Of a DNA stretch of 11,016 bases, positions 1 to 10,374 are shown piece by piece; position 1 is the stretch's first letter; each line of letters starts with the position of its first letter. The translations under genes were made by a program, and so were the position numbers. The DNA comes from Actinomycetospora sp. (GTDB taxonomy: Bacteria > Actinomycetota > Actinomycetes > Mycobacteriales > Pseudonocardiaceae), in assembly GCA_025925615.1 (NCBI GenBank), contig JAICLN010000099.1, positions 1 to 11,016 on the forward strand, read 5' to 3'. Under the pieces are notes generated by a model, which made no database searches, was not told the DNA's origin, and saw only the letters and a list, made by a program, of their open reading frames with translations.

Positions 1-23
1 ACGCCGACGGGGTGCGGCTGTGA
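1..23 (+). CDS. 3' end of an upstream gene (partial, unidentified)
   Basis: The reading frame from base 3 encodes A-D-G-V-R-L and stops at TGA (21-23). That stop overlaps the GTG start of the next gene in a GTGA junction, the same arrangement as the next two junctions in this cassette, which is the main reason to think a coupled upstream gene ends here. Six residues are too few to name it. From memory, PIG-L/methyltransferase/glycosyltransferase cassettes in actinobacteria often follow an acyl-CoA dehydrogenase gene; that is only a guess for this one. Confidence 0.35.
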
Positions 24-853
24 CCGACCTCGGGGCACGGGACCTGACGGGCCCCCGCGACCTGACCGGCCCCCGCGACCTGACCGGAACCGGCACCGCC
101 GAGGCCCGCTGGCGCTCGTCGTCGCTGCTCGCGGCACTGCCGCGGGTCGCGCCGGAAGCGCTGCGGCCGGCCGGGCGCATCGTCGTCGTCGCCCCGCACC
201 CCGACGACGAGACCCTCGGTGCCGGCGGCACGCGCGCGGCCGGGGCCGCCGGCGGGCAGGCCGACGTCGGGGTGGACGTCACCGTGGTCGCCGTGACCGA
301 CGGCGAGGCCAGCCACCCCGGGAGCCCGACGCTGCGCCCCGACGAGCTCGCCGCGCGCCGCCACGACGAGCGCCGGCGGGCGCTGACCGAGCTCGGGCTC
401 GGCGACGCCACGGTGGTCCGGGCCGGGCTCCCCGACGGCGACGTCGCCGGGCCCCGGCACACGCTCGCGGACCAGCTCGACCACGTCGTCCGTGTCGGCG
501 GCACCCTGCTCGCGCCGCTGCCCGGCGACGGGCATCCCGACCACGACGCCGTCGCGGAGGTCGTCGACGAGCTCGCCGCGCGCCGCGGGGTGATCCGGTG
601 GCACTACGCAGTGTGGTTGTGGCACTGGGCGGAGCCGGACGCCGGTGACATCAGGGATGGGGCGGTTCCCCGCGACGGAGCGGTGGCCGTGCCGCTGCCC
701 GAGGCCGCGCAGCGCGCGAAGCGGGACGCCGTGGCGTGCTTCACCACCCAGGTCGAGCCGCTCTCGGCCGACCCCCGCGACGGCGTGATCCTGCCGCCGG
801 AGGTGCTGGCGCGGTTGCTCCGGGACGTCGAGGTGCTGTGGAGGAGCCGGTGA
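20..853 (+). CDS. PIG-L family (LmbE-like) zinc-dependent N-deacetylase
   Basis: This 277-residue protein is a PIG-L/LmbE-fold deacetylase, a family that removes acetyl groups from N-acetylated sugars or glycolipids (MshB is a known member). The signature is VVVAPHPDDETLGAGG at residues 55-70, where H60 and D63 should bind zinc and D62 should be the catalytic base. A second motif, GHPDHDA at 171-177, supplies the third zinc ligand, probably H175. The GTG start at 20 overlaps the preceding stop and is the only plausible in-frame start before the fold begins. The first 24 residues contain three copies of R-D-L-T-G-(P/T), encoded by an 18-base tandem repeat, and look like a disordered tail. The gene is coupled by GTGA to the methyltransferase downstream, so the substrate is probably shared with that enzyme and the glycosyltransferase. 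It is not convincingly MshB, because the neighbours do not fit mycothiol synthesis. The substrate is unknown. Confidence 0.9.
   Translation: MTDLGARDLTGPRDLTGPRDLTGTGTAEARWRSSSLLAALPRVAPEALRPAGRIVVVAPHPDDETLGAGGTRAAGAAGGQADVGVDVTVVAVTDGEASHPGSPTLRPDELAARRHDERRRALTELGLGDATVVRAGLPDGDVAGPRHTLADQLDHVVRVGGTLLAPLPGDGHPDHDAVAEVVDELAARRGVIRWHYAVWLWHWAEPDAGDIRDGAVPRDGAVAVPLPEAAQRAKRDAVACFTTQVEPLSADPRDGVILPPEVLARLLRDVEVLWRSR
38..91 (+). repeat. Three tandem 18-bp repeats in the PIG-L gene
   Basis: Bases 38-55, 56-73 and 74-91 are near-identical 18-mers encoding R-D-L-T-G-P, R-D-L-T-G-P and R-D-L-T-G-T. The first differs from the second at two bases, and the third diverges only near its end. The repeat is in frame, so copy number could vary without breaking the gene. 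It lies before the catalytic domain. Confidence 0.9.
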
Positions 854-1485
854 CTCCCCGCTCGGAGCGGTCGACGGCGTCCCTCGACACGGCGCACTTC
901 GACCGCCTGTGGTCCGACGAGGACGACCCGTGGGGCCTGGAGTCCACCTGGTACGAGGACCGCAAGCGCGCCCTGGTGCTCGCCGCGCTCCCCGACCCCC
1001 GCTACCGCCGCGCGTTCGAGCCGGGATGTGCGGGTGGTGCGCTCTCGGTGCTGCTCGCGCCGCGTTGCGACGAGCTGGTCTGCACCGATGTGGCCGCCGA
1101 GGCGGTGGATCGTGCCCGTGCGCGGTTGGCCGACCAGCCGCACGTGCGGGTGCAGCAGACCGCGGTGCCGGCGGACCTGCCCGACGGACCGTTCGACCTC
1201 GTCGTCGTCTCCGAGCTCGCCTACTACTTCGACGCCGGCGACCGCGCCGCGCTGTGGGACGGCGTCCGCGAGCGGCTGGAGCCCGGCGGGACGCTCGTGG
1301 CCGTGCACTGGGTCCGCGAGGCGCCGGAGTACCCGGTCGAGGGCGACGCGGTGCACGACGAGCTCGCGGGCCTCGACGGGCTGGCCCGGGTCGCGGAGCA
1401 CCGCGAGGCCGACTTCCGCCTCGACGTCCTCGCCCGCGTGCCACCGGCCCCGCGCTCGGTCGCCCAGCGGGTGGGCCTGCGGTGA
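850..1485 (+). CDS. NodS-like class I SAM-dependent methyltransferase
   Basis: This 211-residue protein is a class I methyltransferase resembling the NodS family (N-methyltransferases of amino sugars). The N-terminus contains DPWGLESTWYEDRKR at about 26-40, a NodS-type lead-in. SAM-binding motif I is FEPGCAGG at 56-63, the acidic residue after strand beta-2 is D80, and the post-motif strand is FDLVVVSELAYYF at 115-127. The GTG start at 850 overlaps the deacetylase stop by four bases; an ATG further upstream at 736 would put 38 residues inside the deacetylase gene and is not needed. A deacetylase followed by a NodS-like enzyme suggests that an amine is exposed and then N-methylated on a sugar or similar acceptor. 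That is inference; the substrate is not known. Confidence 0.88.
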   Translation: MTPRSERSTASLDTAHFDRLWSDEDDPWGLESTWYEDRKRALVLAALPDPRYRRAFEPGCAGGALSVLLAPRCDELVCTDVAAEAVDRARARLADQPHVRVQQTAVPADLPDGPFDLVVVSELAYYFDAGDRAALWDGVRERLEPGGTLVAVHWVREAPEYPVEGDAVHDELAGLDGLARVAEHREADFRLDVLARVPPAPRSVAQRVGLR

Positions 1486-2246
1486 CGCGACCGCAGTCGG
1501 CCCCGGAGCTGGCCGTGTCCGACCTGCCGGTCCTGGGCGTCGTCGTGCCCGCCCACGACGAACAGGACCTCCTCGGCGGGTGCCTCGACGCGCTCGCCCG
1601 CGCGGCCCGGTGGGTCTCCGACCGCGCCGTCGTGCGCACCCTCGTCGTCCTCGACGCGTGCCGGGACCGCACCGCCGAGGTCGCGCGGGCGCACGGCGTC
1701 GAGACCGTGGCCGTCGCCGACCGCTGCGTCGGGCGGGCCCGCGACGCCGGGTGCCAGGTGCTCGTCGACGGCGCCGGAGCGCGGCCCGGCTGGCTCGCCA
1801 CCACCGACGCCGACTCCCGGGTGCCCCCGGACTGGCTGCTCGCCCAGCTCGAGGCGTGGGCGCGGCCTGCCGACGCGCGCGTGGGCGCGGTGTACGTCGA
1901 GGACTGGAGCGAGCAGGCCCCCGGCGCGCGGCGCTGGTTCGCCGACGTCTACGACACGGCCGGTGATCCCCACCCGCACGTGCACGGCGCGAACCTCGGC
2001 GTCCGCGCGGCGGCCTACCGGGCGTGCGGGGGCTTCCGGGGTCTGGCGACCGGCGAGGACGTCGCCCTGGTCGACGCCCTCGACGCGGGAGGGTTCACGG
2101 TGCACCGCACGCGGCGCAGTCCGGTGATGACGAGCGCTCGGCGCCTCGCCCGGGCAGCGGACGGGTTCGCGGGCCGGCTGACCGAGCTCGGGGCGCGCGA
2201 CCGGAACGCCGCCGACCGGGACGTCGAGGCGCGGCGCGTCGGCTGA
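1482..2246 (+). CDS. Family 2 (GT-A) glycosyltransferase
   Basis: This 254-residue protein is a GT2-type glycosyltransferase. The nucleotide-binding strand is LGVVVPAHDEQDLL at 18-31. A DxD-like metal site, T-D-A-D-S, lies at 108-112. The acceptor-side motifs are HGANLGVRAAAYRACGGF at 168-185 and GED at 191-193, whose acid is a likely catalytic base. It starts with GTG at 1482 inside the stop region of the methyltransferase (GTGA overlap). No membrane segment is seen, so it is probably cytosolic, making a small glycoside or activated intermediate rather than exporting polymer. It ends the three-gene cassette and faces the MAA operon tail to tail. The donor and acceptor sugars cannot be told from the sequence. 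Confidence 0.9.
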   Translation: MTRPQSAPELAVSDLPVLGVVVPAHDEQDLLGGCLDALARAARWVSDRAVVRTLVVLDACRDRTAEVARAHGVETVAVADRCVGRARDAGCQVLVDGAGARPGWLATTDADSRVPPDWLLAQLEAWARPADARVGAVYVEDWSEQAPGARRWFADVYDTAGDPHPHVHGANLGVRAAAYRACGGFRGLATGEDVALVDALDAGGFTVHRTRRSPVMTSARRLARAADGFAGRLTELGARDRNAADRDVEARRVG

Positions 2247-2295: not shown

Positions 2296-3354
2296 TCACG
2301 CGCGCCGGCGCGCGGCCCGCGTGACCAGCTCGCCGAACAGCTCGTCGAGCTCGATCCCGCCCCGCGCGGCCATCATCGCGACCACGCTGGTGCGGGCGAA
2401 CGAGCAGTACAGCCCCGCCTCCAGGAACCAGGGCCGGCCGTCGGGGTCGACGCGGAAGTCGAAGAGGCCGTAGTCGCGGCAGCCCAGCGCCACGTAGCAG
2501 CGCCGGGCCGCCTCCCACACCGCCGGCGTGACCGGGTCGGCCACGTCGACCATCCAGGCCTTGCCGTCGCCCTTCGCGACCAGGCCGAGCCCGCCGTCGT
2601 CGTCGCGGGCGAGCTTGTCGGCCGGGGTGCGGATCGGCGCGGCCTCGGCGTCGAGCGGGTACTCCTCGAGCGGCAGGCAGACCAGCGCGCCCCCGAGCTC
2701 CACCACCCCGCAGCGCACCTCGCGCCCCGCCGGGACGTAGGTCTCCACCAGTGCGGCGCTCGCGTGCTCGAACGCCGTCGCGAGCGCCGGTCCGCTCTCC
2801 TCGGGGCGGCGGACGAGGGTGACGCCGAGGGAGTTGTCCGAGTCGGCCGGCTTGACCACCACGGGCAGCGCGACGGCGGGCCACGGGTCCCCGGGGCGCA
2901 CGACCTCGCCGTCGGGGACGTCGACGCCGCCGTGCCCGACGATCGCGCGGGTCCGCGGCTTGTCGGCGCCGACCGCCATGACGTCTGCGGCGTTGCCGAC
3001 GACCGGGATGCCGAGGACGTCGAACAGCGCGCGGTAGGACGTCATGCCGGGCAGGCAGAACATCTGCGGGACGACGACGTCGGGGGCGAGAGCGCGGATC
3101 CGCGCGACCGCCTCGGCGACGTCCAGGGCCGGCGTCCCGGCGAGGACGGCCTCGTCCAGCGCGCTGCTGTCGAGGGAGTGGGCGTCGCGCGGGGCCGGGA
3201 AGCGCCAGCAGCCGTCGTCGGAGACGTGGGCGACGACGAACTCGTAGCGCTCCGGGTCGGCGACGGCGGTGAGGGCGTCGCGGGCGTAGAGCCGGGAGAG
3301 CTCGGCGAGGAACTCGCTCGTCGGGGAGCCGACGAGGTGCAGGACGCGCAGCAC
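2296..3354 (-). CDS. mysD: D-Ala-D-Ala ligase-like ATP-grasp enzyme of MAA synthesis (MysD type)
   Basis: This 352-residue ATP-grasp ligase is the last gene of the MAA operon. MysD enzymes condense mycosporine-glycine with a second amino acid (often serine or threonine) at C1 to form the iminomycosporine shinorine or porphyra-334. Visible features are the ATP-binding lysine in VVVKPADSDNSLGV (K168), the segment E204-TYVPAGREVRCGVVE, the acidic residue in YGLFDFRVD (D299) and FLEAGLYCSFA at 310-320. The last replaces the E-x-N-x-x-P-G metal motif of true D-Ala-D-Ala ligases, arguing for an MAA enzyme rather than a cell-wall ligase. The GTG start at 3354 lies four bases after the mysC-type stop, with GGCGGGGG upstream as a plausible ribosome site. 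Which amino acid it adds cannot be predicted here. Confidence 0.9.
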   Translation of the reverse strand: MLRVLHLVGSPTSEFLAELSRLYARDALTAVADPERYEFVVAHVSDDGCWRFPAPRDAHSLDSSALDEAVLAGTPALDVAEAVARIRALAPDVVVPQMFCLPGMTSYRALFDVLGIPVVGNAADVMAVGADKPRTRAIVGHGGVDVPDGEVVRPGDPWPAVALPVVVKPADSDNSLGVTLVRRPEESGPALATAFEHASAALVETYVPAGREVRCGVVELGGALVCLPLEEYPLDAEAAPIRTPADKLARDDDGGLGLVAKGDGKAWMVDVADPVTPAVWEAARRCYVALGCRDYGLFDFRVDPDGRPWFLEAGLYCSFARTSVVAMMAARGGIELDELFGELVTRAARRRA

Positions 3355-3358
3355 GGGT

Positions 3359-4708
3359 TCAGTCCCCCGCCGGTTCGACGAGCTTGCCGATGTTGAAGTC
3401 GATCCTGACCCAGTCGCGGCCCTCGAGGAGGTTCCGCCAGAGCAGCGCCGGGATCTGCAGGTGGTGCACCAGCAGGAACGGCAGCGGGTCGTCGAGGTCG
3501 AAGATCGCGTCGGTGCCGCGCAGGACCACGGCCAGCCGCTCGGGGATGCTCGCCGGACGGCGGATCATGCGCCAGAGCTCGTGGTAGAGCCAGTACGTCG
3601 GCCGGCCGGTGGCGCTGGGGCGCACCGTCGGGCGTGCGGAGTTGGGGCCGGCGTGCTCGAGGTAGGCGCGGGACAGGGCACCGGGCTGGTCGTGGAACAT
3701 CGTGATCGCCGAGTGGGTGCGCGGGTTGCACTCCAGCGCGACCAGCGCCCCGTCGTCACCGACGATGAAGTCGAACGAGTACTGGCCGGTGTACGTGCCG
3801 TCCGCGACGAAGGTCTCCACCCAGCGCTCGATCTCCGGCTCGTCGACCGGGGCGTAGTTCACCTGGAACGCCGAGGACTCGCAGCAGCAGTACACCTGCA
3901 ACCGGCCGTCGCGAGCCGTTCCGTGGGTGCAGTACTCGCGGCCGGGCACGAACGCCTGGAGGATCCACGGGGTGTCCGGCCCGATCGGCTTGGAACGCGC
4001 CAGGGCCGCGGTCTCCTCGCGGGTGGGGCGCGGGAGCGGGGTGAGGTCGAGCCGGTTGACCGCGTCGTACGGGATGCTCTTGAGCACGTACGGCGGCCCG
4101 TCGGCGGGGAAGTCGAAGGCCTCGACCTCCGCCGCGGACGTGACGCGGTGCGTGTCGGGCACCGGCAGCCCCGACGCCCGCGCGGCCGCCGCGAAGGCGG
4201 CCTTGTCGTCGACGGTGCCGATCTGTTCGGCGTCGCCGTGCAGCACCTCGCAGTACTGCTCGAGCACCGGTTTGGCCAGGGCGTCGTACCAGCTCGACGC
4301 CGGGCTGCACACCGGCACGTAGACGTCGACGCCCTCGCGGCGCACCACGTCCACCAGCGCGTCCACGTAGCCGGGGTCGTCCGGGGCCGGGATCACGTGG
4401 AACGCGGCGACGGCGCGGGAGAAGCGGTGCCCGGTGAGCCGGTAGCGCCCGGCCTCGACCAGGACGACGCGGTGGCCCGCGGCGTGGAACGCGCGGGCGA
4501 GGGTCAGCGCCTTGGTCATCTTCCCGCCGCTGACCAGCACCGTCCGGGGACGATCCGGCGTCTCGCGGGCCGGCGCCCCGACGATCGCGCCGCGCGCCAG
4601 CGCTGCGGCGGTGACGGCGAGGTTCGCGGGCAGGGCCGCGGCCAGCAGCGCCTGGGTGGCGAGCGTGCGGGCCGCCCCAGGCCACCTCCTGCCGGACCCG
4701 GGGCTCAT
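3359..4708 (-). CDS. mysC: ATP-grasp ligase, mycosporine-glycine synthase (MysC type)
   Basis: This 449-residue protein matches the MysC family, which phosphorylates 4-deoxygadusol and couples it to glycine, giving mycosporine-glycine. Hallmarks are TVLVSGGKMTKALTLARAFH at 56-75, PYVLKSIPYDAVNRLDLT at 206-223 (K210 for ATP), a cysteine-rich CCCESSAFQVNY at 274-285, and the metal-binding ECNPRTHSAITMF at 326-338 with E326 and N328. Residues 15-45 are hydrophobic (L/A/V-rich) and could be a membrane-anchoring helix before the ATP-grasp fold; from memory cyanobacterial MysC proteins have a similar N-terminal segment. The ATG start overlaps the oxygenase stop by four bases (ATGA), so translation is coupled. 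Length and motif order agree with a complete, functional enzyme. Confidence 0.95.
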   Translation of the reverse strand: MSPGSGRRWPGAARTLATQALLAAALPANLAVTAAALARGAIVGAPARETPDRPRTVLVSGGKMTKALTLARAFHAAGHRVVLVEAGRYRLTGHRFSRAVAAFHVIPAPDDPGYVDALVDVVRREGVDVYVPVCSPASSWYDALAKPVLEQYCEVLHGDAEQIGTVDDKAAFAAAARASGLPVPDTHRVTSAAEVEAFDFPADGPPYVLKSIPYDAVNRLDLTPLPRPTREETAALARSKPIGPDTPWILQAFVPGREYCTHGTARDGRLQVYCCCESSAFQVNYAPVDEPEIERWVETFVADGTYTGQYSFDFIVGDDGALVALECNPRTHSAITMFHDQPGALSRAYLEHAGPNSARPTVRPSATGRPTYWLYHELWRMIRRPASIPERLAVVLRGTDAIFDLDDPLPFLLVHHLQIPALLWRNLLEGRDWVRIDFNIGKLVEPAGD

Positions 4709-5487
4709 GCCACACCCGGGTAGGCGCCGACCATGCCCCGGTGCATCACGCGGTCCCCGACGACGCCGGCGTGGTCGGCCTTGTGCAGGACCGCGCCGTT
4801 GTCCCAGATGACGACGTCGCCGGCCCGCCAGGCGTGCCGGTACACGTTGTCCTCGCGGGTGGAGTGCTCGAGCAGCGCGGTGATCGTGGCGCCCGACTCC
4901 GCCTCGTCCAGGCCGTCGATCGCGGCGCAGCGCTTCGGGGCGTCGAGGTAGAGCGCGACGCGACCGGAGACGGGGTGGGGCCGCAGGACCGGGTGGTCGG
5001 CGGCCGCCTCGTCGTCGGGGCCGAGCTCCAGGCCGGTGACGACGTGGCGCAGCGTGCGCCCCTCGACACGGGCCCGCAGGTCGTCCGGCAGCGTGTCGTG
5101 GGCCCGGAACTGGTTGCTGAACAGGGTCTGGCCGCCCTGCTCGGGGATCTCCACCGCGCGCAGGGCCGTGTAGGCCGGGGGCCGCGCCACGTACCCGGTG
5201 TCGACGTGGAAGGTGCTGCGCGGCGGCTCGGCCCGCCCGACGTTGGAGATCAGGTTGAGGTCGGGGTGCCCCTCGAGCGGCGTCTCCCCCGTGGTGAACG
5301 CCAGGTCCCCGAGGCTGCGCAGGAACGCGGTGAACGTGTCGTCGTCCGCGTCCGCCTGGTCGCGGAGCACGACCACGCCGTGCTCGGCGAGCAGGTCGCG
5401 CAACGCCGTCACGTCGTCGGCGGACAGCGGCCCGACGTCGAGGCCGGTCACCTCGGCGCCCACCGGGGTGAGCGGGTCGACCTTCAT
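4705..5487 (-). CDS. TauD/TfdA family Fe(II)/2-oxoglutarate-dependent dioxygenase in the MAA operon
   Basis: This 260-residue protein is a TauD/TfdA-type oxygenase, which uses Fe(II), O2 and 2-oxoglutarate to hydroxylate, demethylate, desaturate or otherwise oxidise a small molecule. The iron triad is H94 and D96 in STFHVDTGY and, by alignment to TauD, H235 in WDNGAVLHKADH. The 2-oxoglutarate-binding arginine is probably R250 in DRVMHRGMV. The start is the ATG at 5487, which overlaps the methyltransferase stop (ATGA); a much longer open frame upstream is only the methyltransferase strand read out of frame. It sits between mysB and mysC with overlaps at both ends, so it is made together with the MAA enzymes. 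The oxygenase known to tailor MAAs in cyanobacteria (MysH) is, from memory, of the phytanoyl-CoA dioxygenase type, not TauD. A role in modifying 4-deoxygadusol, mycosporine-glycine or the final MAA is inference. Confidence 0.9.
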   Translation of the reverse strand: MKVDPLTPVGAEVTGLDVGPLSADDVTALRDLLAEHGVVVLRDQADADDDTFTAFLRSLGDLAFTTGETPLEGHPDLNLISNVGRAEPPRSTFHVDTGYVARPPAYTALRAVEIPEQGGQTLFSNQFRAHDTLPDDLRARVEGRTLRHVVTGLELGPDDEAAADHPVLRPHPVSGRVALYLDAPKRCAAIDGLDEAESGATITALLEHSTREDNVYRHAWRAGDVVIWDNGAVLHKADHAGVVGDRVMHRGMVGAYPGVA

Positions 5488-6362
5488 GCGTCCTCCCCGG
5501 GCGCGCGCCGGATCAGGGTGAGGCCGTCGCGGAGCGGGACGAGGACCTGCTCGACCCGCGGGTCGGCGGCCACACCGTCGTTGAACGCCGCGATGGCCGC
5601 CCCGTTGGCGGTCTGATCGAGCGCGCCGTAGGCCCGGCCCTGCATGAGGGTGTTGTCGACGACAACGAGCCCGTGCGGCGCGAGCAGCCCGCCCGCCAGC
5701 AGGAGGTCGAGGTACTCGGCGTACCCGGCCTTGTCGGCGTCGACGAAGACGAGGTCGAAGCTCTCCCCCGCCTCGTCCAGGGCGCGCAGCGTCGCGGCGG
5801 CCGGCCCGACGCGCACGTCCACGCGCCCACCGGCCGTCGACGCCGCGAAGCACTCCTGCGCGAACGCGGCCACCTCGGCGTCGACCTCGCAGGCGACGAC
5901 CCGGCCGCCGTGCCCGACGGCCTCGGCCATCGCCAGCGCCGAGTACCCGGTGAACATGCCGACCTCGAGGACCGTCCGGGCGCGGGTGGCGTGCACCAGG
6001 GTCGAGAGCAGCCGGCCCTCGACGTGCCCGGAGAGCATCTCCTGCTCCAGACCGGTGTCGCCGGCGTGCTCGCGCCAGTCGTGCTCGGCGGTGCGGCGGG
6101 CGAGCTCGGCGAGCGCGGGCGACGGTGGCGTCGTGCACCGCTCGAGGTAGGGGTCGAGGCCGGTGGCCAGCTCCCGGGCGCTGCGCAGCCGGTCGAGGCC
6201 CGCCGCGTCGAGCGCACCCCGTTCCGCCCGCGCGAGCACGTCGTCGAGGGTGGCGGCGAGGATGCCGACCGGGGTGACCGGGCGCGGGTCCCCGGGGGGC
6301 GTCACCCCTGTTCCCGTCCCCTGTGCGGTCGTCGGAGCCGCTGTCGTCGAGGGCGGGGTCAC
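5484..6362 (-). CDS. mysB: O-methyltransferase forming 4-deoxygadusol (MysB type)
   Basis: This 292-residue enzyme is a class I, metal-dependent (caffeoyl-CoA-OMT-like) O-methyltransferase. In MAA synthesis MysB methylates desmethyl-4-deoxygadusol to 4-deoxygadusol. Family-typical segments are [14 protein letters not shown] at 66-79, [12 protein letters not shown] at 105-116, SAM motif [19 protein letters not shown] at 131-148, E159 in ACEVD, the metal site FVDADK at 206-211, VVDNTLMQG at 234-242, and the C-terminal [15 protein letters not shown] at 266-280. The GTG at 6362 overlaps the cyclase stop (GTGA) and is preferred. It gives a 28-residue Thr/Pro/Gly-rich leader before PVTPVGIL. An internal GTG at 6305 would remove most of that leader and cannot be excluded. 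The rest of the protein agrees with MysB along its length. Confidence 0.94.
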
Positions 6363-7603
6363 GAGGCGACCACCTGCTCGGGCACCACGAACATGTCCTC
6401 GCCCTCGCCCCCGCGGGGGTAGCCCGCCGCGAGCTCGTGGTGGGCCTCGAGGGTCGCGGCGAGCTCGTCGACGGTGAGGTCGTTGATGAAGACGCAGGTC
6501 CCGATCGGACGCGGGACCGCGGCGCGCAGCTGCCCGTCGCGGGTCGCCACGATGGAGTCCGTGGCCCTGGCGAGCAGCTCCGCGGTCAGGTACGGACTGT
6601 CGAGCGTGAGCCCGATCCGGCTCAGCAGCCAGAAGATGCGGTCCCGCTCGCCGGCCGATATGTCGCCGCGCCGCTCGGCCAGCGTCGTCGAGAACGCCAT
6701 GTCGACGGCGATCGCGTGCCCGTGGAAGTAGGGCCGCTCCGGGGTGAGCTCGAGGGTGGGGCTCCACGTGTGGCCGAACGCGATGACGCGGTCGAGGTCG
6801 AGCTCCTGCAGGTTCGGGACCTCGAGCTCGAGCATCGTGCGGATGGCGTCGTAGGTCAGCCGGTGGGCGATCTCGCGCAGCTCCTCGGACCCGTCGAGGT
6901 GACCGAACCGGGTGGTCAGCAGGTCCTCGCCGTACTTCTCGAGGGTCTCGAAGATGTCGCTGTTGCCCACCGTCGCGATCTTCACGAGCTCGGCCATGCC
7001 GTTGCGCACCTGGTCGACCGGCAACGTCCGCAGGAACGAGAAGTCGAGGATGACCTGCTGCGAGGCGTGGAACGCGCCGAGGCGGTTCTTGGCCTTGCCG
7101 TGGTTCACCGCGACCTTGATCGCGACGCTGGCGTCGATCAGCCCGATCAGCGTCGTCGGGATCCGGATGTAGTTGGTGGCGCGCCGGAACATCGAGCACG
7201 CCATCCCGGTGACGTCCGTGATCAGACCGCCCCCGACGACGAGCACCGGCTCGGTGCGCACGAGACCGAAGTCGCCGAACGCGTCGACGATGCGCTCCGC
7301 GGTCCGCATGGTCTTGTCCGGCTCGCGGATGACCAGCGGGAACAGCGTGAGCGCGATCCCGTGGTGGTCGAAGTACGTACGGATCTGCTCGCCGTAGAGG
7401 TCGAGCACGGCGCGGTCGATGACCATGAGGCAGCGGCCGTAGGAGCGGTAGGCCTCGGCCAGCTCGGGGTTCTCCGGGGAGAACACGCCGTCGACGTAGC
7501 GCAGCGAGTAGTCGATCTTCTCGTAGGCCTGGACGTGGAAGGCGGTGTCGGTCGCGGTGAGCCGTGGCTCCGGCGCGGCCGTTCTCGGTTCGGTGGCGGT
7601 CAT
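6359..7603 (-). CDS. mysA: Sugar phosphate cyclase, desmethyl-4-deoxygadusol synthase (MysA/DDGS type)
   Basis: This 414-residue protein belongs to the dehydroquinate synthase-like sugar phosphate cyclases. DDGS cyclises sedoheptulose 7-phosphate with NAD+ and a divalent metal to desmethyl-4-deoxygadusol. The NAD-binding [20 protein letters not shown] lies at 124-143, followed by [19 protein letters not shown] at 147-165 and [16 protein letters not shown] at 167-182. Probable metal ligands are E205 (GMAELVK), H278 (FGHTWSP) and H294 ([10 protein letters not shown]). The AFHASQ segment and the lack of a classic AroB HGEAV motif separate it from dehydroquinate synthase. The close relative 2-epi-5-epi-valiolone synthase shares most motifs; DDGS is chosen because mysB, mysC and mysD types follow directly. 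The ATG start has a strong AGGAGG five bases upstream. Confidence 0.93.
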
Positions 7604-7608
7604 GGTGG

Positions 7609-7614
7609 CCTCCT
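7609..7614 (-). promoter_or_regulatory. Strong Shine-Dalgarno of mysA
   Basis: AGGAGG on the minus strand, five bases from the ATG at 7603. It settles the start codon. Unlike the downstream genes of the operon, which rely on overlap with the preceding stop, mysA has its own strong ribosome site after a 100-base spacer. Confidence 0.85.
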
Positions 7615-7632
7615 GGGCACGACGACGGAGCC

Positions 7633-7649
7633 CACGGGCGGCGCCCGTG
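7633..7649 (-). other. Perfect hairpin between the HAD-like gene and mysA
   Basis: CACGGGC (7633-7639) and GCCCGTG (7643-7649) form a 7-bp perfect stem with a 3-base loop in the 100-base spacer. No T-tract follows on the minus strand, so it is not a clear terminator. It could be an mRNA-stabilising or attenuating structure that sets the ratio of the HAD-like protein to the MAA enzymes, or chance in GC-rich DNA. Confidence 0.4.
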
Positions 7650-7703
7650 CGGCAGGGAGGGTGGGATGGTCAGGGGCGGCGGACGGGCAGGGGCCCGGCC
7701 GGC

Positions 7704-8378
7704 TCAGCGTCCGGCGGCGAGGGAGGCCAGCTCGGACAGGTCGAGGTGGTCGACCCGGCCGACGGTGCCCGCGAAGTCGGACGCGGCGGTGTTCTCGTTG
7801 GGGAAGGCGACGCAGGGGACACCGGCGGCCTCGGCCGCGCGGGCGCCCCCGGGGTTGTCCTCGACGGCGACGCACTGCGAGGCGGAGAGCCCGAGCTCGC
7901 CCAGCGCCACCTGGTAGGCGGCGGGGTCGGGCTTGGTCCGCTCGACCCGCGAGGAGTCGACGACCACGTCGAGCGCGCCGGCGCCGATCTCGCCCTTCAC
8001 GCCGTCGAGCAGCGCCGCGACGTTCTCCTTCGACGTGGAGGTGACGAGCCCGACGCGCAGGCCCTGCTCGTGCGCCGAACGGATCGTCTCGACGACCCCC
8101 GGCCGCGGCTGCAGGCCCGAGGAGCCGAGCAGCTCCTGGAAGATCTGCGACTTGGTCGCGTGCACGGCGTCGGCGTCGACGGACTCGCCGACCGACTGCG
8201 CGTACTCGGCGATGCGGTCCCGCCCGCCGTTGCTCTCGAGCATGGCGACATAGCGCTCGCGGTCCCACTCCCAGTCCAGACCATGACGGGAGAACGCCTC
8301 GTTGAACGCTCGGCGCTGGAGCTCGGACGTGTCGACGACGGTGCTGATGGAGCCCAGCAGGACAGCGGACGGAGACAT
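7704..8378 (-). CDS. HAD-superfamily (CbbY/beta-phosphoglucomutase-like) protein lacking the catalytic DxD motif
   Basis: This 224-residue protein has the layout of a subfamily-I HAD phosphatase. Motif II is LVTSTS at 111-116, motif III is the lysine in RTKPDPAAY (K149), and motif IV is AVEDNPGGARAAEAAG at 171-186 with E173 and D174. Motif I, normally hydrophobic-D-x-D-G-T, reads AVLLGSISTVVDTSELQ at 5-21: the nucleophile Asp is G9 and the acid/base Asp is I11. Standard Asp-phosphate catalysis should therefore be impossible. The DNA read base by base gives GGC TCC ATC at these codons, with no frameshift nearby. I recall related HAD proteins with a G-S-I motif in other bacteria, so this may be a conserved non-canonical subgroup rather than a decayed gene. 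It has a strong GGAGGTG ribosome site and precedes mysA by 100 bases on the same strand, so it is probably the first gene of the MAA transcript. Its role is unknown. Confidence 0.85.
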   Translation of the reverse strand: MSPSAVLLGSISTVVDTSELQRRAFNEAFSRHGLDWEWDRERYVAMLESNGGRDRIAEYAQSVGESVDADAVHATKSQIFQELLGSSGLQPRPGVVETIRSAHEQGLRVGLVTSTSKENVAALLDGVKGEIGAGALDVVVDSSRVERTKPDPAAYQVALGELGLSASQCVAVEDNPGGARAAEAAGVPCVAFPNENTAASDFAGTVGRVDHLDLSELASLAAGR

Positions 8379-8510: not shown

Positions 8511-9338
8511 CTACAGCTCGGCCCGTCGCGAGGCGATGGTGTGGGCGATGTCGCGAATCTTCACGTTCAGGTCCTGCGAGGCCCGGCGCAGGATGTCGAA
8601 GGCCTCGTCGGCGTCGGCTCCCCGACGTTCCATGAGGATCCCCTTGGCCTGCCCGATCACGTCGCGGGACATGAGCGCCTCGGTGAGCTGGACGGTGCGC
8701 AGCCGCTCGGCCTCGACACCGCGGGCGGCGTGCAGGGCGACGGCCGCGTAGGAGGCGAGGATGAGCATGGCGTCCTGGTCGACATCGGCGAACCCGTCGG
8801 CGTCGCGGAAGTAGTAGTTCAGCGCCCCCAGCCGCGGCGGGTCGCCGCCCGGGAACATGCCGGTGGAGCACACGGCGCCCATCCCGAGCTCGACCACGCG
8901 CGGGCCGAAGCGCGGGTAACGGTCGTCGTGGGCGAGATCCGTGCTCACCGTGAAGCCCGAGCTCGAGCTGGCGGTCGCCTCCACGCAGGGACCCTCGCCG
9001 GTGGCGTACTGGATCCCGTCCGCACGGGTGGCGAGCGGATCGGTCTCGGCCGGCGTGTGGAAGGTGCCGTCGGCCTCGCGCAGCGTGACCGACACCATCG
9101 CCGCCGTCGGCACGATCGAGGTGGCGCGGTGCACCACGCGCTCGAGGACGCCGACGACCCCGGTCTCCGGTGGCACCGCGAACAGGTCATGGCTCAGCCC
9201 GACGAACTCCGCGGCCAGCGGACCGATGTCCCGTTCGGTGGCGACCGACGCCGCTGATCGGTCCCCGTCCGTCCCGCGCCCGCCCTCGAACTCGACGAAG
9301 CGCGCGCGGGCCTCCTGCCACTCCTCCTCGGTCGCCAT
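8511..9338 (-). CDS. GAF-ANTAR domain transcription antitermination regulator
   Basis: This 275-residue protein has a GAF domain at about 57-205 (landmarks GEGPCVEA at 114-121, a run of hydrophobic strands, and GALNYYFRDADGF at 171-183) and a C-terminal ANTAR domain at about 213-268 (LTEALMSRDVIGQAKGILME and SQDLNVKIRDIAHTI). ANTAR domains bind paired hairpins in RNA and prevent transcription termination; the GAF domain would sense a ligand or redox state. The ATG at 9338 is preferred because it opens with a typical MATEEEWQEAR helix; an open frame continues 82 codons upstream but is Pro/Arg/Gly-rich and looks non-coding. The ribosome site is weak (GCGGGT). It lies upstream of and in the same direction as the MAA operon, with a hairpin and a short gap between, so it is a candidate regulator of it. 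Such proteins are numerous in actinomycetes, so the link may be coincidental. Confidence 0.9.
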   Translation of the reverse strand: MATEEEWQEARARFVEFEGGRGTDGDRSAASVATERDIGPLAAEFVGLSHDLFAVPPETGVVGVLERVVHRATSIVPTAAMVSVTLREADGTFHTPAETDPLATRADGIQYATGEGPCVEATASSSSGFTVSTDLAHDDRYPRFGPRVVELGMGAVCSTGMFPGGDPPRLGALNYYFRDADGFADVDQDAMLILASYAAVALHAARGVEAERLRTVQLTEALMSRDVIGQAKGILMERRGADADEAFDILRRASQDLNVKIRDIAHTIASRRAEL

Positions 9339-9582
9339 ACCCGCAGCGGTACCCGACCCGGGGTGCTGTCCACGCGTGGGGTGTGTTCCGCGATCCGGGG
9401 TGTGGACCGGCGGCGGGGCCGGGTAGCTCCGGATCACCACCAGTTCGCGAACCCGGGTCCGCGGTGGTGTCAGGTCCTCGCCGGTGCAGACCGGGCCGCC
9501 GGCGGGGCCGAACCACGGAGTTCCCTCACCCCGACCCGGCCTCCGGGTCCGGAACCACCCGCGAGGCCTCGAGGAGGCCCGC
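9339..9582. promoter_or_regulatory. Divergent intergenic region with palindromes and repeats
   Basis: This 244-base region separates the minus-strand GAF-ANTAR gene from the plus-strand DUF1990-like gene and must hold promoters for both. Seen in it: a perfect 10-base palindrome CCACGCGTGG (9370-9379); three copies of GGGGTG at 9360, 9378 and 9397, spaced 18 and 19 bases; an inverted pair GTCCAC/GTGGAC (9369-9374, 9402-9407); and CACCACC/GGTGGTG (9435-9441, 9463-9469) flanking two palindromes, TTCGCGAA (9444-9451) and ACCCGGGT (9451-9458). No convincing -35/-10 pair was recognised on either strand. Frames that run across it have no coding character. Confidence 0.5.
9571..9577 (+). promoter_or_regulatory. 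Shine-Dalgarno of the DUF1990-like gene
   Basis: GAGGAGG lies five bases before the ATG at 9583. It selects this start over the in-frame ATG at 9484, whose 33 extra residues are Pro/Arg/Gly-rich and read like intergenic sequence. Confidence 0.8.
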
Positions 9583-10374
9583 ATGGGTCCGGCAGGTACG
9601 CGCGGCGAGCCCGCCCACCCCGACGCGGTCGAGCAGGAGTCACGCTCCGGCCGTGCCCCCGTCCGCCTCGCGGCGCGGTGGGTGGTCGGGATGGGCGTGA
9701 TGGGATGGAGCTACCTGCGCGAGCCGGTGCCGATCCGGCGTGCGGAGTTCCTCGGCGGCGACGACGACCTGCCTCCCGCCGTCCCCGACGCCCTGCTCGA
9801 CGAGCGCTCGCAGCCCGCGGAGCAGGGGCACGGGCCGCTGTACCGCCGCCGCTTCCGGGTGCTCGTCGACGATCCGGACCTCGACGCCGCGACCCTGATG
9901 ACCCGGGTCGCCGGCGATCTGACGCTGCTGCTGCCCGGTGAGGTCGCGGCGGTCTCGCCGCGCACCGAGGCCCGGACGTTGCCCGGGCCGGGCGACGAGT
10001 TCGTGGTCCGCATGCCCGGGCCCTGGGACGGCCCGGTGCGGGTGGTCCTGCGCGACGAGACCCGGCTGCGGCTGGCCACGCTCTCCGGTCACCTCGAGGC
10101 GGGCCAGATCGAGTTCCGCGCGACCGACGACGACGGGGCCCTGTGCTTCGAGATCGAGACGTGGGCGCGTCCGGGGACGGCGCTCGTGCGCCTGCTCTTC
10201 GCCGACCTGCGCGTGGCGAAGGAGATGCAGCTCTACATGTGGGTGCGGGCCTGCGACGCCGCCGCCCGGCTGGCCGGGGGACGGGTGCGCGACGGCGTCG
10301 ACGTGTGGACCCACCGTGTCGAGGTCGCCCCGCACGGCGGCCGGCGCCGGCCCTGGCCCCGCCCTCGTCGCTGA
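9583..10374 (+). CDS. DUF1990-like protein of unknown function
   Basis: This 263-residue protein resembles the DUF1990 group, for which I know no biochemical function. The most recognisable part is the C-terminal half: DEFVVRMPGPWDGPVRVV, then LATLSGHLEAGQIEFRA, FEIETWARPG and AKEMQLYMW, a pattern of beta-strands like a lipocalin- or START-like binding barrel (structure is inferred). The first 30 or so residues are variable. There is no signal peptide, although AARWVVGMGVMGWSYL near residues 30-45 is mildly hydrophobic. The C-terminal tail is rich in Arg and Pro. It is divergent from the GAF-ANTAR gene, with a 114-base gap to the next small gene. Nothing ties it to MAA synthesis apart from position. 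Confidence 0.75.
   Translation: MGPAGTRGEPAHPDAVEQESRSGRAPVRLAARWVVGMGVMGWSYLREPVPIRRAEFLGGDDDLPPAVPDALLDERSQPAEQGHGPLYRRRFRVLVDDPDLDAATLMTRVAGDLTLLLPGEVAAVSPRTEARTLPGPGDEFVVRMPGPWDGPVRVVLRDETRLRLATLSGHLEAGQIEFRATDDDGALCFEIETWARPGTALVRLLFADLRVAKEMQLYMWVRACDAAARLAGGRVRDGVDVWTHRVEVAPHGGRRRPWPRPRR

What the first reader, a model, noticed from the sequence alone, without database searches (positions are those of the whole stretch)
2296..8378. Mycosporine-like amino acid operon with two non-standard members
The mysA, mysB, mysC and mysD types are all present, intact by their motifs, and tightly coupled by overlaps. MAA operons are best known from cyanobacteria; from memory, actinomycete examples exist (Actinosynnema mirum, a Pseudonocardia strain) but are few. 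Here the core is interleaved with a TauD oxygenase and preceded by a HAD-like protein, suggesting a product or control step beyond shinorine/porphyra-334.
Basis: partly seen in the sequence, partly recalled or inferred. Interest (0 to 1): 0.8.

Follow-up and report, generated by a model that had tools for sequence, protein, structure and literature searches.

The report
Sunscreen operon with a dead phosphatase
This is a real bacterial sunscreen (mycosporine-like amino acid) operon of a kind already described from actinobacteria, but its first gene, taken for a phosphatase, has lost its catalytic residues in every relative examined, so it probably binds a sugar phosphate or a partner enzyme instead of cutting anything.

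Summary
The cyclase is a DDGS by score and tree. The operon is not rare: MysA is in 29 of 397 sampled genomes of the order. HAD and TauD genes in such clusters were reported in 2025 (GATOR-GC, PMC11888242; [quoted passage not shown]

The parts
7704..8378 (-). HAD-like pseudophosphatase (224 aa), CbbY fold, motif I D-x-D-G replaced by G-S-I-S, cap His replaced by Gln
   Evidence: CbbY 4uat/4uar best by sequence; model pLDDT 93.6; CbbY best fold match; motif conservation
6359..7603 (-). MysA: 2-demethyl-4-deoxygadusol synthase (DDGS, 414 aa)
   Evidence: 5tpr 598 bits, ValA/EEVS 4p53 259 bits, best DHQ synthase 119 bits; inside the DDGS clade (99/99); K163 and N167 (window numbering) invariant in 45 of 45 DDGS rows
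5484..6362 (-). MysB: O-methyltransferase (292 aa, GTG start, 4-bp overlap with mysA)
   Evidence: PF01596, 1.5e-43
4705..5487 (-). TauD/TfdA Fe(II)/2-oxoglutarate dioxygenase (260 aa, overlaps mysB by 4 bp)
   Evidence: PF02668, 3e-53; PlaO1 best; iron ligands H94, D96, H235 and R246 conserved
3359..4708 (-). MysC: ATP-grasp ligase (449 aa)
   Evidence: NF005315, 416.7 bits against cut-off 406; found near MysA in 43 of 43 loci
2296..3354 (-). MysD: D-Ala-D-Ala-ligase-like (352 aa, GTG start)
   Evidence: PF07478, 2.8e-19; found in 43 of 43 loci, in L052 only a piece at a contig end
7604..7703 (-). HAD/mysA intergenic gap with AGGAGG shortly before the mysA ATG

Best explanation
The operon turns sedoheptulose 7-phosphate into a palythine-type sunscreen. 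MysA closes the ring to demethyl-deoxygadusol, MysB methylates it, MysC adds glycine, MysD adds a second amino acid (shinorine type), and TauD, a Fe(II)/2-oxoglutarate oxygenase, most likely oxidises the glycine alpha-carbon so that it falls off, leaving a palythine. The HAD-like first gene is not an enzyme of the pathway but a conserved pseudophosphatase derived from the CbbY family. It keeps the sugar-phosphate cap, the phosphate-binding Thr and Lys and the Mg-binding Glu-Asp, but has swapped the nucleophile, the acid/base and the cap His, so it should hold a ketose phosphate (most simply sedoheptulose 7-phosphate) without cutting it. I propose that it acts on the entry cyclase next to it, as a substrate-loaded activator or hand-off partner. 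Shown by sequence: gene content, DDGS identity, TauD ligands, loss of the HAD catalytic residues, purifying selection, linkage. Inferred: the MysA-D steps (known for the families, recalled), TauD chemistry (recalled MysH chemistry plus a second-hand report), HAD ligand, HAD partner. My estimates: MAA operon 0.97; TauD makes palythines 0.65; HAD non-hydrolytic 0.88; HAD acts on the cyclase 0.4.
Against: The cyclase beside HAD in L118 and L119 is only about 37% identical to MysA, so one conserved DDGS-HAD interface cannot be universal. HAD evolves faster than MysA: dN/dS above MysA in 12 of 13 pairs, and the highest of the six genes in one pair (L014/L016). No ligand, complex or expression was tested. 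The TauD model is weak (pLDDT 73.4, under 50 around H94-D96 and at the C-terminus). Two Actinomycetospora species keep a TauD lacking two iron ligands, L007 has TauD in two frames, and three loci outside L055/L056 lack TauD, so TauD's step is optional.
Confidence: 0.55

Rival explanations
1. The HAD-like protein binds something other than a cyclase substrate, for example the MAA product, an intermediate or a stress metabolite, and works as a sensor or regulator of the pathway or as a carrier to MysC/MysD, not as a cyclase partner.
For: It persists when DDGS is replaced by a divergent cyclase, and MysC and MysD accompany it in all 43 HAD-bearing loci. It has invariant residues where the intact set has others (S10, S12, S18, Q21, N175, N196), which suggests a changed ligand.
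Against: 29 near-invariant positions are shared with the intact CbbY set, among them cap and phosphate-binding residues. It sits next to the cyclase in 41 of 41 DDGS loci that have it and in 2 of 2 with the replacement cyclase.
Confidence: 0.3
2. The HAD-like protein is still an enzyme, using a different set of residues (for example the new serines) for a phosphate transfer or a non-hydrolytic reaction in the pathway.
For: The replaced loop is itself almost invariant (G9 and S10 44/44), as an active site would be; motifs II-IV are kept.
Against: Asp nucleophile, acid/base Asp and cap His are all gone; positions 7-12 hold only hydrophobic, Gly or Ser residues in all 42 rows. A HAD phosphatase without the Asp nucleophile is not known to me (recalled), and no step of the known pathway lacks an enzyme (recalled).
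Confidence: 0.1
3. TauD does not make palythines but hydroxylates or desaturates the MAA or its amino acid side chain, giving a new product.
For: It shows no meaningful BLASTP alignment to the PhyH-type oxygenase of a Nostoc MAA cluster and is closest to PlaO1 and to herbicide and taurine dioxygenases.
Against: GATOR-GC cites unpublished production of palythine and palythine-serine from a R. fascians operon holding HAD and TauD.
Confidence: 0.25
4. HAD and TauD are passengers with no role in MAA synthesis.
For: The actinobacterial loci L055 and L056 do without both.
Against: HAD is in 41 and TauD in 38 of 43 loci from several families, TauD in three arrangements (22 after MysB and before MysC or with MysC elsewhere, 15 after MysD, 1 on the opposite strand). 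By coordinates no flanking gene family recurs in more than 10 loci (22 largest clusters printed).
Confidence: 0.04

Closest known systems
Actinobacterial MAA clusters with HAD and TauD/TfdA (GATOR-GC, PMC11888242; section 36 and passages seen)
   Same: Same gene content: DHQS-like cyclase, O-methyltransferase, ATP-grasp, D-Ala-D-Ala ligase, HAD, TauD
   Different: That paper treats the HAD as an enzyme of unvalidated role; aspartate, nucleophil, catalytic and pseudoenzyme have 0 occurrences in its main text. The catalytic loss, the alternative cyclase and the TauD deletion variant are not in the parts I saw; its supplements were not seen.
Cyanobacterial MAA cluster (Nostoc sp. HK-01 plasmid AP018319)
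   Same: MysA 65.5% identical; MysB, MysC and MysD homologues at 55, 53 and 52%
   Different: No HAD or TauD homologue in the 17-kb stretch (tblastn, best E 0.28 and 9.9); its oxygenase is a PhyH-family protein
   Same: MysA-D in the same order
   Different: No HAD and no TauD
CbbY, xylulose-1,5-bisphosphate phosphatase (4uar, 4uat, 4uau)
   Different: D8, D10 and H20 of CbbY are G9, I11 and Q21 here
MysH, Fe/2OG palythine synthase (recalled as PhyH type; mentioned in passages of PMC11888242)
   Same: Proposed reaction
   Different: Different oxygenase family

Membership tests
MAA biosynthetic operon (mysA-D) | DDGS-type cyclase rather than EEVS or AroB | tested here: met
   (DDGS clade 99/99 in a tree of 18 cyclases)
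MAA biosynthetic operon (mysA-D) | O-methyltransferase, ATP-grasp and D-Ala-D-Ala-ligase-like genes beside it | tested here: met
MAA biosynthetic operon (mysA-D) | Makes a UV-absorbing MAA | not testable with these tools
   Needs expression and LC-MS
Actinobacterial HAD/TauD MAA cluster (GATOR-GC) | HAD and TauD/TfdA genes within the MAA cluster | tested here: met
HAD phosphatase, CbbY type | CbbY fold and cap | tested here: met
HAD phosphatase, CbbY type | Motif I Asp nucleophile and acid/base Asp | tested here: not met
   G9 44/44; I11 43/44 with Leu in one
HAD phosphatase, CbbY type | Motif II Thr/Ser, motif III Lys, motif IV acidic pair | tested here: met
   T113, K149, E173, D174 all 44/44
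TauD/TfdA Fe(II)/2OG dioxygenase | HxD...H iron ligands and distal Arg for 2-oxoglutarate | tested here: met
   H94, D96, H235, R246 present in the window and conserved; their roles are recalled
MysH (palythine synthase) | PhyH-family sequence (recalled) | tested here: not met
   PF02668 and not PF05721 at E <= 0.001; no meaningful BLASTP alignment to the Nostoc PhyH protein
MysH (palythine synthase) | Converts shinorine-type MAAs to palythines | not testable with these tools
   Second-hand report for a Rhodococcus operon of this type only

The most novel reading that the evidence does not exclude
Actinobacterial sunscreen operons are marked by a dedicated, catalytically dead sugar-phosphate phosphatase that has been kept as a ketose-phosphate-binding subunit or activator of the entry cyclase: a pseudoenzyme that gates carbon flow from the pentose phosphate pathway into MAAs, and that is kept even when the cyclase is swapped for a divergent one with a long N-terminal extension.
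Probability: 0.38. Interest if true: 0.75.

Novelty: new variant of a known kind. Interest (0 to 1): 0.5.

Why it matters
The question left open in print is what the conserved HAD does in these clusters; treating it as a phosphatase sends experiments the wrong way. If it is a pseudoenzyme that controls the cyclase, adding it could change MAA yield in engineered producers, and a catalytically lost HAD protein would be the fixed mark of a biosynthetic operon. The replacement cyclase in two genomes also offers a divergent sugar phosphate cyclase to test.

Tried and rejected
EEVS or AroB identity of the cyclase: rejected on scores and on a tree that holds ValA, a S. clavuligerus sedoheptulose 7-phosphate cyclase and six further paralogues. 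Rarity in actinomycetes: rejected. HAD tied to TauD ('highly co-localized' in GATOR-GC): not supported, since HAD is present in three loci without TauD. HAD tied to MysB: rejected, since L058 and L059 lack MysB and their genomes have only weak homologues (best about 5e-18). HAD tied to DDGS sequence: rejected by L118 and L119. The replacement cyclase as 2-epi-valiolone synthase: not supported; the second cyclase of G083, which I take from memory to be that enzyme, is 30% identical and groups elsewhere (100/100), while the replacement cyclase is sister to DDGS with moderate support (90/93). A structured RNA, sigma-70 promoter or terminator before HAD: no Rfam match, no consensus site, leader fold z -2.03, 3 of 200 shuffles as low. 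Defence families: none for the four proteins tried. Other conserved neighbour genes: among the 22 largest ORF clusters printed, those in more than 10 loci fall, by their coordinates, on the six genes or on frames overlapping them (ORFs under 90 aa or with third-position GC under 0.78 were left out). Plasmid search: one DDGS-level hit, Nostoc HK-01; the other 17 records are 36-37% cyclases (18 records in all). GATOR-GC also reports HAD and TauD in Pseudomonadota and Bacillota; I could not test the motif there.

Rows dropped or altered: 7 genome loci (L068, L098-L102, L104) were dropped as duplicates of contigs by equal contig length. Start codons in scripts were chosen mechanically. L007 TauD enters the alignment only as its 3' piece of 120 aa. 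The TauD structure alignment holds 16 rows: the window and 15 of the 18 TauD loci (L004, L007, L020 left out). The MysA tree holds only DDGS rows and says nothing about EEVS.
Full report
What is there. The window is contig C364 of a 3.52 Mb, 59.8% complete assembly; the nearest relative found is Actinomycetospora endophytica (L002; MysA 91% identical). On the minus strand lie HAD-like, mysA, mysB, tauD, mysC and mysD, from 8378 down to 2296. MysA/MysB, MysB/TauD and TauD/MysC overlap by 4 bp; MysC and MysD are 4 bp apart; HAD and MysA are 100 bp apart with AGGAGG before the mysA start.

The core. MysA scores 598 bits against the PDB entry 5tpr (the Anabaena DDGS; that identity is recalled) but 259 against the EEVS ValA (4p53) and 119 or less against DHQ synthases. 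In a tree of 18 cyclases it lies in a DDGS clade (99/99) with 5tpr and a Nostoc protein, apart from ValA and a S. clavuligerus cyclase and from six DHQ-synthase-like paralogues. K163 and N167 are invariant across 45 DDGS rows. MysB is an O-methyltransferase and MysD a D-Ala-D-Ala-ligase-like protein; MysC has no Pfam match but passes the NCBIfam cut-off for PRK06849. TauD is PF02668 at 3e-53 and nearest PlaO1 by sequence and by fold; its model is modest (pLDDT 73.4).

How common. A scan of GTDB contigs with MysA gave 19 loci. MysA at E <= 1e-90 was in 29 of 397 genomes of the order and 5 of 396 of the phylum, the window's own genome included. After dropping 7 duplicates I compared 43 loci: HAD directly upstream of MysA on the same strand in 41, MysB in 41, MysC and MysD in 43 (in L052, a short contig, they lie on the other side on the opposite strand and MysD is cut), TauD in 38. 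TauD comes after MysB in 22, after MysD in 15 and on the opposite strand in 1. The two loci without HAD (L055, L056) also lack TauD, and their genomes have no HAD at E <= 1e-30. One of them has a chromosome of 8,248,144 bases, which I recall as that of Actinosynnema mirum. A Nostoc plasmid cluster has neither (tblastn).

Prior art. GATOR-GC (PMC11888242; section 36 read, other passages seen) already reports HAD and TauD/TfdA as conserved in MAA clusters, absent from Cyanobacteriota and found in Actinomycetota, Pseudomonadota and Bacillota. It cites unpublished work in which a R. fascians D188 operon with HAD and TauD gave shinorine, palythine and palythine-serine, and calls the role of the HAD unvalidated. 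The search for mycosporine with haloacid dehalogenase gave two papers, one of them GATOR-GC; mycosporine with pseudoenzyme gave none. Most subscription papers are not in that library, and I saw no supplements.

Linkage as a clue. Among 298 genomes of the order, all 22 HAD hits at E <= 1e-65 are in genomes on the MysA list; the three weaker hits (1e-33 to 4e-32) are intact-type with D-V-D. Among 396 genomes of the phylum the seven with strong HAD hits are the seven with MysC. Two of these (G500, G636; L118, L119) have no DDGS in the cluster. Their cyclase is about 37% identical to MysA, carries roughly 150-200 extra N-terminal residues (start codons uncertain), and has Arg and Asp where all DDGS rows have K163 and N167. 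The two are 60% identical to each other and sister to DDGS with moderate support (90/93). It was not found at that level in the other 4 genomes of one family and 34 of the other that were searched. HAD also persists without TauD (L011, L049, L107) and without MysB (L058, L059). What is present with it in 43 of 43 loci is a cyclase, MysC and MysD, and the cyclase is its immediate neighbour in each. Hence my proposal that it serves the cyclase step, held at about 0.4.

TauD. In the rows that cover the positions, H94 and D96 are in 36 of 36, H235 in 39 of 39, R246 in 37 of 37. L004 and L020 share an internal deletion that removes H94 and D96 yet keep an open frame, and L007 reads in two frames, so some lineages have probably lost this step. 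The likely reaction, N-dealkylation of the glycine arm to give palythines, rests on the second-hand Rhodococcus result and on recalled MysH chemistry. TauD is not a MysH by family.

Limits. 

Noticed in passing
L118:10289-12205 (-) and L119:9987-11789 (-): MAA clusters with a divergent sugar phosphate cyclase (about 37% to MysA, 60% to each other) with a long N-terminal extension; K163 and N167 of DDGS are Arg and Asp.
   Followed up: partly
L004:11039-11593 and L020:11039-11587: TauD of two Actinomycetospora species shares an internal deletion removing the HxD iron ligands but keeps its frame and place in the operon.
   Followed up: partly
L058 and L059 (G281, G207): Clusters without MysB; best homologues elsewhere in the genomes only about 5e-18, so the ring may stay unmethylated or another methyltransferase serves.
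   Followed up: partly
L007, about 11009-11736: TauD reads in two frames, a frameshift or a sequencing error.
   Followed up: no
window 8511-9584 (-): GAF/ANTAR-domain gene directly upstream on the same strand, 132 bp before HAD; ANTAR proteins are RNA-binding antiterminators (recalled). tblastn found a homologue in only 1 of 43 loci (L063, downstream), and the leader fold is only z -2.03.
   Followed up: partly
window 20-2246 (+): Convergent neighbours: PIG-L-type deacetylase and a family 2 glycosyltransferase, with a further open frame between them.
   Followed up: no
L049 (G267): MysA groups with the window's clade (99/96) while its HAD falls outside it, hinting at gene exchange within the operon.
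   Followed up: no
L061:6395-7018 (-, orientation) and 8 similar loci: A divergent ORF of about 207 aa, TetR-like by eye, upstream of the cluster in 9 loci; not checked against Pfam.
   Followed up: no
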